DNA from: Alphaproteobacteria bacterium
GTDB lineage: Bacteria; Pseudomonadota; Alphaproteobacteria; Micavibrionales; Micavibrionaceae
DNA: 46,039 nucleotides
Direction of reading: 5' to 3'
Assembly: GCA_003245575.1 (NCBI GenBank)
Contig: QKCR01000148.1
Span: forward strand, 1 to 46,039
Below are positions 29,847 through 46,039 of this stretch, piece after piece. A model generated the notes under the pieces. That model did not search any database. It was not told the DNA's origin and worked only from the letters and a program-made list of their open reading frames with translations. Every line of letters begins with the position of its first letter. The stretch's first letter is position 1. Position numbers and translations under genes: made by a program.

Positions 29847-30572
29847 TTATTTCGCTTTCTTCTTTTTCGGGGCGGTGACTGCTTTCTTTTCCGCTTTTTC
29901 AGGAGGGGTAAAGCCTTTGTTGGCGTCAACATTCGGGACGAGTGCGCGTTCCCACATTTCATCGAATTGGCGACGGCAGAGTATGGACATGATTGGACTT
30001 TCTACAACGAAGACCGTGACATCGCCTTCTTCAAATCCGATATAAGCCACTTTGTCTCCGTACACATAAAACGGAACGGAGTAGAATTGTTCAGCCGGAG
30101 TCCATCTGTATTCAGTGGTAAAGTTCATGGCCGGCATATAGTCATCGCCTTCGACAATCAGAATGCGATACTTTACAGAGGCCTTGTTCATTGTCGAGTA
30201 GTGGCGGAAGAGTGTTTCCTCGTCTAGCCAAAACAGAAAGTCCCGTTCATCCACGTTGCAAACCAGAAACTCGTCTTTGTTCAAGGTCAGGGCCGTTGAA
30301 TCAATATCCTGATAGAATTTTTGGAATCCTGAGCGACCGCTATAAATTTGCATTGATCCGGTCTTTTTCTTGACACCTTCGCCTGGGGTGAACTCCAATC
30401 CGGCAACGTCAAAGGCGTCGAATATTCTTTGTAAAGTCGGGGCAGACGGTTTTTGTTTGCCAAGCTCGATATTGGCAATTGTGGGCGTGGTCAAACCAGA
30501 GCGATTTGACAATTCAGTCTGGCTCCAGTTGAGAAGGGCGCGTGCGGCTCTGATTTGGTTGCTTGTAATCAT
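29847..30572 (-). CDS. XRE-family regulator with a TrmB/PLD-like C-terminal domain
   Basis: The 241-residue protein starts with an XRE helix-turn-helix (residues about 3-58; QIRAARALLNWSQTELSNRS, then TPTIANIELGKQKPS). The C-terminal part has the pattern EYRWTPAEQFYSVPFYVYGDKVAYIGF, then VFVVESPIM and RRQFDEMW, which resembles the catalytically dead PLD/HKD-like sensory domain of TrmB-type regulators. No HxK motif is seen, so it should not be a lipase. The C-terminal tail is Lys/Ala rich. A paralogue with the same layout is encoded at the right edge (45395). The promoter at 30579-30607 would give a leaderless mRNA. The regulated genes are unknown; the aspartoacylase-like gene is divergent. 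Confidence 0.8.
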   Translation of the reverse strand: MITSNQIRAARALLNWSQTELSNRSGLTTPTIANIELGKQKPSAPTLQRIFDAFDVAGLEFTPGEGVKKKTGSMQIYSGRSGFQKFYQDIDSTALTLNKDEFLVCNVDERDFLFWLDEETLFRHYSTMNKASVKYRILIVEGDDYMPAMNFTTEYRWTPAEQFYSVPFYVYGDKVAYIGFEEGDVTVFVVESPIMSILCRRQFDEMWERALVPNVDANKGFTPPEKAEKKAVTAPKKKKAK

Positions 30573-44681: not shown

Positions 44682-45398
44682 TTAGGCCGCTGTTTGGGAG
44701 ATGATTCTTTCATGCTTTCTAAGAAAATCAACTTCCATGATAGGGTAGTGTTTTAGGCCTTCGGGAAGCTCTTTGATTAGAAGTCTTCGGGGATTGTTTA
44801 ATATGTTGAGAAATTGTCCGGCATAAATTTCAACAAAATCTTTTTGTTCATTGAGAAGCGACATTAAAGCCAGTTCAGCCAAAATATATTTCCGGGATAG
44901 ATCTAAAATGCGGTCTTTTTTTTCTCGCGATATAATTGATCCGCGATTTTCTAATCTTATTATGAAGCTATTAATGTCATCGTCTATGAGAGCCGCAAAC
45001 AGCGCATTTGATTTGTAGAGATCATGCAATTCATGGAGTTGCTGTTCCAGAGGGCGTGAGTCTGATAAGTCTTTAAATCTATTCAGCGGTATGTTGGGGA
45101 AATTTGACAAAATGGAATGATTTTTTTCTATCCATTCGTCTCCCATTTTACGTGCTAGAAGTATTGCTTCTTCGTAACTAATATTTTTTTCTAATTGAAT
45201 ATTATAAGCGTGAACATCGTCATAGATGTCTAATTGGACTTGTGCGTATTTTTGTGATGCCCATGTCAATAGTGCATCCAGTTTCATTCCTCCGTGCCTT
45301 GCGTTGTTCAGGCTAATTCCAATATGAGCGCAGGATACAAAACCTCCTTGATTGGAGTTCTTTAAAATTTTTACCTTATAGTCAAAAGGCCTTGTCAT
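44682..45398 (-). CDS. tRNA-dependent cyclodipeptide synthase
   Basis: A 238-residue protein that aligns by eye with AlbC-type cyclodipeptide synthases, which use two aminoacyl-tRNAs to make a cyclic dipeptide (2,5-diketopiperazine). The nucleophile serine sits in IGISLNN (Ser29, AlbC Ser37), with Asn32 where AlbC has Asn40. A Rossmann-like strand and helix follow: LDALLTWASQKYAQVQLDIY (40-59), where AlbC has LLQWAGQRF. The acid/base residues are Tyr171 and Glu175 in KYILAELAL (AlbC Tyr178 and Glu182 in YVLAEAPL). A further Tyr192 matches AlbC Tyr202 roughly, but the adjacent His203 is Ala193 here, so the protein is outside the plain NYH pattern. It overlaps the regulator upstream by ATGA. 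No tailoring oxidase or methyltransferase is seen downstream. Confidence 0.85.
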   Translation of the reverse strand: MTRPFDYKVKILKNSNQGGFVSCAHIGISLNNARHGGMKLDALLTWASQKYAQVQLDIYDDVHAYNIQLEKNISYEEAILLARKMGDEWIEKNHSILSNFPNIPLNRFKDLSDSRPLEQQLHELHDLYKSNALFAALIDDDINSFIIRLENRGSIISREKKDRILDLSRKYILAELALMSLLNEQKDFVEIYAGQFLNILNNPRRLLIKELPEGLKHYPIMEVDFLRKHERIISQTAA

Positions 45399-46039
45399 AG
45401 GTATCTAATTTCCGATGTACTTTTTTCGGGTTCCTTGAGAAATCCCCACAGGATGTTAAACATATTTCTTCTTGTTTCTGCTAAAAGTTCATCTTTTATA
45501 ACTAGAGCCTGAGTTTGGTTTTCTGTTGTTACTGCCAGTTTGTCAGCATAAATCAGGCTTACATAGTTTCTGAACTTATTTTTTGGTGTGTATCTATATT
45601 CATTCAGCGGCCCCATAATGGTTGTATTGCCTTCGCAGACCATCAGTCTCATCTTGATGCCGTCCGCTCTCATGGCTTTGACTTTTTCAATGACTTCAGT
45701 CGGAGATTGGTTTTCATCGGCAAATTCTAAAAGAAGCTCGGGATGATCTTCTTTTAGAAGGGAGTGGTGAACGTCATCCAGAAGTCTTAGATACCAACCA
45801 TCTCCGTCAATGATGGTAACAGTATTCTTTTTGAGCCGAACACCGTCCTCTATGAATTCAATACCTGCCAGCTCTAAAGCTTTCACAATTTTATCAATTG
45901 TTGCTTTTTGCGGTGTTGTTCTTGCAACTTCCAGATTGGCTACAGAAAATTTTGATAGTCCTGCTCTGTTGGCCAAGTCATCTTGCGTCCAATCCAGCAA
46001 AGTTCTGGCGGCTTTTATCTGGCTAATGTGTGGGCTTGT
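45395..46039 (-). CDS. XRE-family regulator with TrmB/PLD-like C-terminal domain, start cut by the window edge
   Basis: The frame is open to the right edge; the visible sequence starts in the helix-turn-helix (SQIKAARTLLDWTQDDLANR), so only a few N-terminal residues are missing. The TTG at 46000 is not the real start, because the homologous residues upstream continue to the edge. The C-terminal part LNEYRYTPKNKFRNYVSLIY, then ADKLAVTTENQTQALVIKD and RNMFNILW matches the same domain in the gene at 29847, so the two are paralogues. It overlaps the cyclodipeptide synthase gene by four bases (ATGA), so the operon is regulator first, enzyme second. A role in sensing the product or its precursor is a reasonable inference. 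Confidence 0.8.
   Translation of the reverse strand, partial: TSPHISQIKAARTLLDWTQDDLANRAGLSKFSVANLEVARTTPQKATIDKIVKALELAGIEFIEDGVRLKKNTVTIIDGDGWYLRLLDDVHHSLLKEDHPELLLEFADENQSPTEVIEKVKAMRADGIKMRLMVCEGNTTIMGPLNEYRYTPKNKFRNYVSLIYADKLAVTTENQTQALVIKDELLAETRRNMFNILWGFLKEPEKSTSEIRYL

What the first reader, a model, noticed from the sequence alone, without database searches (positions are those of the whole stretch)
44682..46039. Cyclodipeptide synthase encoded as the second gene of an XRE/TrmB-like regulator operon
The protein at 44682-45398 has the AlbC-type catalytic set (Ser29 in GIS, Asn32, Tyr171, Glu175) and the same order of secondary elements. Such enzymes are uncommon, and their usual neighbours are tailoring oxidases or methyltransferases. 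Here there is no tailoring gene on the visible side; the partner is instead a ligand-sensor-like regulator translationally coupled by ATGA. His203 of AlbC is Ala here, so the product class cannot be guessed. A diketopiperazine used as a signal and sensed by its own regulator would be an attractive, untested model.
Basis: partly seen in the sequence, partly recalled or inferred. Interest (0 to 1): 0.87.

Follow-up and report, generated by a model that had tools for sequence, protein, structure and literature searches.

The report
Mobile cyclic-dipeptide synthase–sensor gene pair
A gene for an enzyme that should join two amino acids into a small ring sits directly behind a gene for a DNA-binding sensor protein, and this pair recurs as a unit, sometimes inside viruses of bacteria, among relatives of the predatory bacterium Micavibrio, which suggests but does not prove that the sensor responds to what the enzyme makes.

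Summary
ORF 44682-45398(-) is a remote cyclodipeptide synthase (CDPS): 0.1 bit under the Pfam and NCBIfam cut-offs, but a profile of its relatives matches solved CDPSs at E 5e-46 and the predicted fold matches the nearest ones at Z 22-25. Ser29, Tyr171, Glu175 and Tyr192 are present. The gene ahead, overlapping by ATGA and cut by the contig end, is an XRE protein with a PLD/TrmB-fold sensor domain. New here: all 28 Pfam-detected CDPS loci in 142 genomes of the order have this regulator immediately upstream; 43 distinct modules were found. CDPS-linked regulators form one clade. A few modules lie in prophage-like DNA. No conserved tailoring gene was seen. At least 16 modules have a related small gene diverging from the regulator. 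Most likely: a mobile synthase-plus-sensor circuit responding to the cyclodipeptide. Enzyme activity, ligand and autoregulation are untested; natural-product and toxin-antitoxin readings remain open. New variant of a known kind.

The parts
44682..45398 (-). Cyclodipeptide synthase, XYP-like (S29, N32, Y171, E175, Y192, A193), 238 aa, ends -QTAA
45395..46039 (-). XRE helix-turn-helix (HTH_3 at residues 8-56) plus PLD/TrmB-fold sensor domain (about 70-204); 5' end cut by the contig end, 214 aa visible
   Evidence: no H-x-K-x4-D motif in it or in any of 44 module regulators examined
45395..45398 (-). ATGA overlap of regulator stop and CDPS start; only a weak GGAA 11 bases ahead of the start, read by eye, so translational coupling is plausible (inference)
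29847..30572 (-). Solo paralogue of the regulator without a CDPS; falls outside the CDPS-linked clade. Comparison only, not part of the module

Best explanation
A two-gene mobile circuit. The CDPS uses two aminoacyl-tRNAs to make a cyclic dipeptide (inferred from family, fold and conserved residues). The co-translated XRE protein binds operator DNA through its N-terminal domain (inferred from fold) and binds that cyclic dipeptide, or a close derivative, in its non-catalytic PLD/TrmB-type domain, so that the product feeds back on its own operon and, where present, on a small divergently transcribed gene. Diketopiperazines can cross membranes (general knowledge), so the circuit could work within a cell or between cells. 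Shown: gene order, strict linkage within the order, folds, conserved catalytic residues, clade-specific conservation of sensor residues, movement of the pair between contexts. Inferred: activity, ligand, direction of regulation, output.
For: 28 of 28 CDPS loci found by Pfam in 142 genomes of the order have the regulator as the next upstream gene on the same strand. 34 CDPS-linked regulators fall in one clade (SH-aLRT 98, quick tree without bootstrap, midpoint root) that holds only 3 of 37 solo regulators. Regulator and CDPS distances correlate (r 0.67, n 34; highest of 5000 permutations 0.30; 0.46 without the near-identical pairs). Sensor residues L84, L87, S112, V116, R124, G127, T139 and E147 are conserved in CDPS-linked regulators (82-97%) but not in 34 solo ones (6-38%). 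Sensor fold like TrmB's sugar-binding domain. Some other members of the regulator family precede a small-molecule-type enzyme: PF10017 methyltransferases in 3 of 32 solo loci surveyed and in L242. In other lineages CDPSs are joined to or next to PAS-histidine kinases: fused in L045, adjacent in L046 and on the Endohaliclona plasmid L212.
Against: No ligand, product or activity shown. The regulator family is widespread without CDPS (117 of 135 genomes of the order have it; 18 of 32 solo loci surveyed have no same-strand gene close behind), so linkage may mean only control. Outside the order linkage is not strict (3 of 6 assessable class-level loci). The window CDPS has Ala where 33 of 34 have Glu (column 174) and Ala for the usual Pro; one relative (L220) has lost the Tyr and Glu. 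Correlated distances may partly reflect organism relatedness. PLD-fold domains also bind nucleic acids, proteins or phosphates. The window's own promoter is not visible and no shared operator was found in relatives.
Confidence: 0.5

Rival explanations
1. Minimal natural-product locus: the XRE protein is an ordinary pathway regulator answering to some other cue, and the cyclic dipeptide is the end product (siderophore, inhibitor, factor used against prey or competitors), as PchR/YvmB controls yvmC-cypX in Bacillus subtilis.
For: PchR precedent: MarR-type repressor, divergent arrangement, palindrome in the yvmC promoter (PMC4992311, passages). Hosts are relatives of predatory Micavibrio.
Against: No conserved tailoring, export or resistance gene seen within 6 kb of 13 loci (some contigs shorter) by all-against-all clustering and reading; flanking genes were not annotated one by one. 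The sensor clade follows CDPS linkage. The pair occurs in unrelated contexts without other pathway genes.
Confidence: 0.27
2. Toxin-antitoxin-like or abortive module: the HTH protein is repressor and perhaps antitoxin; the CDPS drains charged tRNAs and stops growth when released, for example on phage infection.
For: HTH-first, overlapping two-gene order; HTH nearest to HipB- and C-protein-type domains; patchy distribution and some prophage-like locations; CDPS C-termini end in -AA in 14 of 35 modules, but in none of the 7 added later with a visible end (14 of 42 in all); such ends recall ClpXP-type degrons (recalled, not tested).
Against: No CDPS hit in PADLOC; the regulator's hits there cover its HTH only, apart from a chance-level GajB match. 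CDPS-linked regulators carry a large sensor domain. Characterised CDPSs are expressed in E. coli to give products (PMC5816076, passages).
Confidence: 0.13
3. The CDPS fold is kept but the protein no longer makes cyclic dipeptides; it works as an aminoacyl-tRNA sensor or binding partner of the regulator.
For: Window-specific A174 and the minority A193; L220 has lost the Tyr and Glu; scores just under curated cut-offs.
Against: Ser29 34/34, Glu175 33/34 and Tyr192 33/34 are kept over very diverged sequences (mean pairwise identity 27%), which is hard to explain without catalysis.
Confidence: 0.1

Closest known systems
Solved CDPSs 5ocd (Fluoribacter), 9j61 (Streptomyces sapporonensis), 5mlq (Nocardia brasiliensis), 5mlp (Rickettsiella); XYP label for most is recalled
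   Same: Fold, length, catalytic Ser/Tyr/Glu/Tyr; first hits by sequence and structure
   Different: About 20% identity; Pro replaced by Ala in the window; strict XRE-PLD partner within the order
PchR(YvmB)-YvmC/CypX of Bacillus subtilis
   Same: A CDPS beside a transcription factor that controls it (PMC4992311, passages)
   Different: MarR regulator on a divergent gene, P450 gene in the CDPS operon; CDPS of the AlbC-like branch (recalled)
CDPS loci with PAS domains (PMC5767969, section 9 read); here L045 fusion, L046, L212
   Same: CDPS linked to a sensor; a quorum-sensing role is already proposed in that paper
   Different: Histidine kinase rather than an XRE regulator; L045 and L046 belong to a branch that Pfam scores far higher
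TrmB / TrmBL2 archaeal regulators
   Same: Sensor domain fold, Z 10.4-11.9
   Different: XRE instead of TrmB's own DNA-binding domain; no Pfam TrmB-family sequence hit at E up to 1
LuxI/LuxR and phage arbitrium (works-like only; arbitrium from abstracts)
   Same: Signal maker coded beside its presumed receptor; some copies in prophage-like DNA
   Different: Unrelated proteins; signalling not shown here

Membership tests
Cyclodipeptide synthase | Score over the curated annotation cut-off (a naming rule, not a trait) | tested here: not met
   PF16715 26.9 of 27 bits, E 4.6e-6; TIGR04539 44.9 of 45, E 9.3e-12. The Pfam cut-off also misses clear relatives: L236 no hit, L237 16.5 bits, though both score over 200 bits with the relatives' profile
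Cyclodipeptide synthase | Homology to solved CDPSs | tested here: met
   Profile of window plus 27 relatives: 5ocd E 5.4e-46, AlbC 2.9e-11
[quoted passage not shown]
   Z 25.5, 23.1, 22.4 to the nearest CDPSs, 14.2-19.8 to others; best tRNA synthetase 13.6
Cyclodipeptide synthase | Catalytic Ser, Tyr, Glu, Tyr | tested here: met
   S29, Y171, E175, Y192 by alignment; geometry not measured
Cyclodipeptide synthase | Makes a cyclic dipeptide from aminoacyl-tRNAs | not testable with these tools
   needs expression and mass spectrometry
NYH (AlbC) subfamily | Asn40, Tyr202, His203 (AlbC numbering, recalled) | tested here: not met
   N and Y present, His position is Ala193
XYP subfamily | Tyr-Pro pair with variable residue 40 | tested here: inconclusive
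   28 of 34 modules have Pro; the window and 3 others have Ala. No tree with characterised CDPSs was made
TrmB family regulator | TrmB-type sensor fold | tested here: met
   2f5t Z 10.8, 3qph Z 10.4, TrmBL2 5box Z 11.9; PLD-family proteins score as high (NucT 12.7, Nuc 12.2)
TrmB family regulator | TrmB's own DNA-binding domain (winged helix, recalled) | tested here: not met
   HTH_3 31.9 bits over cut-off 23; C.Kpn2I 4yba Z 12.1 over residues 1-70
PLD-superfamily enzyme | H-x-K-x4-D motif | tested here: not met
   absent in 44 of 44 module regulators examined (one of the 44 is a duplicate contig)
Type II toxin-antitoxin | Second gene toxic, neutralised by the first | not testable with these tools
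   order and overlap fit; toxicity untested; no PADLOC hit for the CDPS
Signal synthase-receptor pair | Synthase and candidate receptor genes strictly linked | tested here: met
   28 of 28 in the order; 3 of 6 assessable loci elsewhere in the class
Signal synthase-receptor pair | Regulator binds the product | not testable with these tools
   needs purified protein and ligand
Signal synthase-receptor pair | Operator in the module's own promoter | tested here: inconclusive
   85 six-base-arm palindromes in 32 upstream regions of relatives against 38.3 (sd 7.6) in mononucleotide shuffles; AT-rich, overlapping counts, no shared motif; window promoter not visible

The most novel reading that the evidence does not exclude
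A previously undescribed cyclodipeptide signalling cassette: an XRE-PLD receptor and its CDPS travel together, with an often present fast-evolving small divergent protein as output or modulator; in prophage-borne copies it could inform lysis-lysogeny or superinfection decisions, a small-molecule counterpart of arbitrium, in predatory bacteria and their kin.
Probability: 0.28. Interest if true: 0.86.

Novelty: new variant of a known kind. Interest (0 to 1): 0.64.

Why it matters
CDPSs are studied mainly as starters of tailored natural products; a signalling role has been suggested (PMC5767969, section 9) but in the papers I saw no receptor was named. Here a CDPS has a strictly linked, clade-specific candidate receptor, no conserved tailoring gene, and probably cultivable hosts: modules occur in two single-contig genomes (G031, G081) of the genus that also holds a MAG named Micavibrio aeruginosavorus. 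So whether a cyclic dipeptide is a signal becomes directly testable with two genes and a reporter. It would also add a chemical circuit to the biology of predatory bacteria and their phages.

Tried and rejected
AlbC-type (NYH) assignment: rejected, see membership test. Chance similarity: rejected. Single odd neighbourhood: rejected (28 of 28 in the order).

Searches that led nowhere or limit the claim. Viral scan with the full regulator alignment used only a helix-turn-helix pattern: its 79 loci held no sensor domain or CDPS at E 1e-3. A sensor-domain scan of viral contigs confirmed nothing. The CDPS scan found one contig, L211; both scans rest on one or two short patterns. No CDPS match in 50,697 phage records and matches in only 4 of 72,556 plasmid records, all Endohaliclona, whose annotated neighbours are a hypothetical gene and a histidine kinase; one relative's CDPS was the query. 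Regulator against phage records: helix-turn-helix matches only, none covering 80%. First genome-contig scan with the window protein found nothing. Class sample: 9 of 385 genomes with CDPS; 7 are new loci: regulator adjacent in 3 (L047, L048, L050), absent in 3 (L045, L046, L049), locus ends in 1 (L051). Phylum sample: 0 of 397 other genomes. So '28 of 28' is a statement about the order, not about all CDPSs.

Counts and dropped rows. Pfam under-counts: of the 13 regulator hits over 195 bits at which Pfam had reported no CDPS, 9 have a CDPS directly downstream and 4 do not; two of the 9 are in the window's genus, where 10 other genomes were searched. L136, L137, L140, L153 and these 8 were found through the regulator, so they are no test of linkage. 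L017 was left out of the tree and of the 34-row counts because its regulator ORF is truncated.

Not done: promoter/terminator scan, tree against characterised CDPSs, substrate prediction, distances in the models. Operator search gave no shared motif. Paper searches combining CDPS with XRE, helix-turn-helix, phage or quorum terms, Micavibrio with cyclodipeptide, and diketopiperazine with lysogeny listed no title or abstract start that describes this pairing (listings capped at 10 to 40 of up to thousands, open-access library, no preprints). The single paper with both Micavibrio and cyclodipeptide (PMC6773942) was not read.

Full report
What is there. The window is one whole contig (G000:C21) of a 2.3 Mb, 89.7% complete genome in 160 contigs. 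At its right end two minus-strand genes overlap by ATGA: 45395-46039 (214 aa visible, cut by the contig end) and 44682-45398 (238 aa). The last 2 kb have the lowest G+C of 23 windows (0.396 against 0.431-0.498). The closing 30 bases of the contig occur nowhere else in the assembly at up to 1 mismatch, so the promoter cannot be seen.

The second gene. Pfam CDPS 26.9 bits (cut-off 27, E 4.6e-6) and TIGR04539 44.9 bits (cut-off 45, E 9.3e-12) both fall a hair short. Sequence search of solved structures finds CDPSs first (5ocd E 1.8e-9), AlbC only at E 0.25. A profile of the window protein and 27 relatives finds 5ocd at 5.4e-46, 5mlq at 9.9e-45 and AlbC at 2.9e-11. The model (pLDDT 89.5) matches the nearest solved CDPSs at Z 22-25, other CDPSs at 14-20 (AlbC 15.7), tRNA synthetases at 13.6 or less. 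Across 34 aligned modules the presumed catalytic Ser, Glu and Tyr are nearly invariant (34, 33 and 33 of 34) and the other Tyr is Y 26, F 7, S 1. Position 193 is Pro in 28 and Ala in 4, so this looks like an XYP-like branch. The window protein alone has Ala in a column (174) that is Glu in the other 33; whether this matters is unknown.

The first gene. Residues 8-56 are HTH_3 (31.9 bits, cut-off 23). The model is very confident (pLDDT 96.2). Residues 70-204 take the PLD/TrmB fold: NucT Z 12.7, Nuc 12.2, TrmBL2 11.9, TrmB sugar-binding domain 10.8. A sequence profile of the sensor domain finds no convincing solved relative (best E 0.008, sigma factor). No H-x-K-x4-D motif is present in 44 module regulators examined, so it is most likely a non-catalytic sensor.

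The pair is a module. PF16715 rings in 26 of 142 genomes of the order, 28 loci. In all 28 the next gene upstream on the same strand is a homologue of this regulator, overlapping or adjacent (one regulator, L017, is truncated). Searching with the regulator instead shows that it is widespread (117 of 135 genomes at E 1e-10) and that 9 of 13 high-scoring copies at which Pfam had reported no CDPS are followed by one that Pfam missed, two of them in the window's genus. In total 43 distinct modules (count explained under Tried and rejected). Outside the order linkage is looser: of 7 further class-level loci, 3 have the regulator, 3 do not, 1 is cut. Thirty-four linked regulators form one clade (SH-aLRT 98, quick tree) with 3 of 37 solo ones inside, one of these in a module locus and two in the L162 array. 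Eight sensor-domain positions are specific to linked regulators. Regulator and CDPS distances are correlated (r 0.67, 0.46 without near-identical pairs).

Hosts and mobility. A relative in the window's family (G082, L223) is identical over the 200 bases compared to a MAG named Micavibrio aeruginosavorus (L134). NCBI places that name in Bdellovibrionota, while many sister MAGs are named Alphaproteobacteria; I take the host to be an uncultured relative of Micavibrio, by inference. Modules also occur in two single-contig genomes of that genus, 2,481,983 and 2,458,610 bases, which I recall as strains ARL-13 and EPB. Among 13 loci compared, flanking gene families other than the pair are shared only by pairs of loci (for instance L024 with L025, L021 with L025, L022 with L026, L017 with L024). 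L211/L224 carries exonuclease VIII and integrase genes on a contig called viral; L027 has an integrase gene; L028 and L017 have phage-type replication genes. Within the order the module is patchy.

A small divergent gene in relatives. Upstream of the regulator, 37 to 359 bases away and diverging, many loci have a small ORF. Profiles seeded with two or three such ORFs and iterated up to four times over 2622 ORFs of 35 loci, of which 58 are in the divergent position, recruited at E 0.02 only divergent-position ORFs: in the largest run 9, of which 2 were seeds; in all, 14 loci (two of the four runs had not converged; weaker hits include other ORFs). Tested on 501 ORFs of 13 new loci (20 divergent), the profiles hit 2, both divergent, and these two proteins carry both motif types, which suggests one family of about 140 aa. 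That makes at least 16 of 43 modules; L025/L225 are weaker. No hit over a curated cut-off in Pfam (best sub-threshold: DUF4709 20.4 of 27 bits, UPF0302 19.4 of 27) and none below E 0.05 in PHROGs. In the two same-genus modules no such ORF is seen, so it may be absent in the window's module too.

How it probably works. The steps shown are the linkage, the folds, the conserved residues and the change of context. The steps inferred are that the CDPS makes a cyclic dipeptide, that the regulator binds it, and that the complex controls the operon and the small divergent gene. In favour of a sensing role: the sensor clade follows CDPS linkage, no tailoring gene was seen, and some solo members of the regulator family precede other small-molecule-type enzymes (PF10017 methyltransferases in L156, L164, L175 and L242; other methyl-, acetyl- or aminotransferases in 6 more of the 9 tested; but 18 of 32 solo loci have no same-strand gene close behind). 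Elsewhere CDPSs are fused or adjacent to PAS histidine kinases, an association with PAS domains already noted by Skinnider et al., who propose quorum sensing (PMC5767969, section 9 read). Against it: no experiment, and a pathway regulator or a toxin-like pair explains the gene order equally well. I put the sensing model at about one half.

Known and new. CDPSs, XRE proteins and PLD-fold sensors are known; PchR/YvmB is a known CDPS regulator (PMC4992311, passages read). The overviews PMC5816076 and PMC2922099 were seen in passages only. I found no paper describing an XRE-PLD/CDPS module in the listings named above. I therefore rate it a new variant of a known kind.

Noticed in passing
L162:2793-9230: An array of XRE-PLD-type regulator genes (7 by profile, about 9 by eye) beside a metK-like gene (by eye), no CDPS detected; two of them belong to the CDPS-linked clade.
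   Followed up: partly
L045:1438-3633: CDPS fused to PAS and histidine-kinase ATPase domains in one open frame: a natural enzyme-sensor fusion.
   Followed up: partly
L242:2999-5330 (single-contig genome G081): Two regulators of the family flank a PF10017 histidine-methyltransferase-like gene with short overlaps at both sides; similar pairs in L156, L164, L175.
   Followed up: partly
L232:2363-2797, L243:3774-4199 and 14 further loci: Unnamed fast-evolving small protein family, divergent from the module regulator; several members also end in -AA.
   Followed up: partly
CDPS C-termini: 14 of 35 distinct module CDPSs end in -AA, 14 of 42 after adding later ones; ORFs of 120 aa or more in the same loci 32 of 349, those CDPSs included. 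Could be a ClpXP-type degron (recalled).
   Followed up: partly
L220:3972-4796: Module CDPS that aligns with Ser and Lys at the Tyr171 and Glu175 positions and Asn for the Pro: perhaps inactive.
   Followed up: no
L212 (MK748464.1, Candidatus Endohaliclona plasmid): A gene annotated only as hypothetical is 30% identical to a module CDPS over 84% (no Pfam hit at E 0.001) and lies before a PAS sensor kinase, on the plasmid that carries RenA.
   Followed up: partly
L049:117-2124: CDPS directly behind an FRG-domain gene instead of the XRE regulator.
   Followed up: no
L017:10381-10743 and L024:772-1125: Related small genes near two modules that look RelE/HigB-like by eye (same cluster); not tested.
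   Followed up: no
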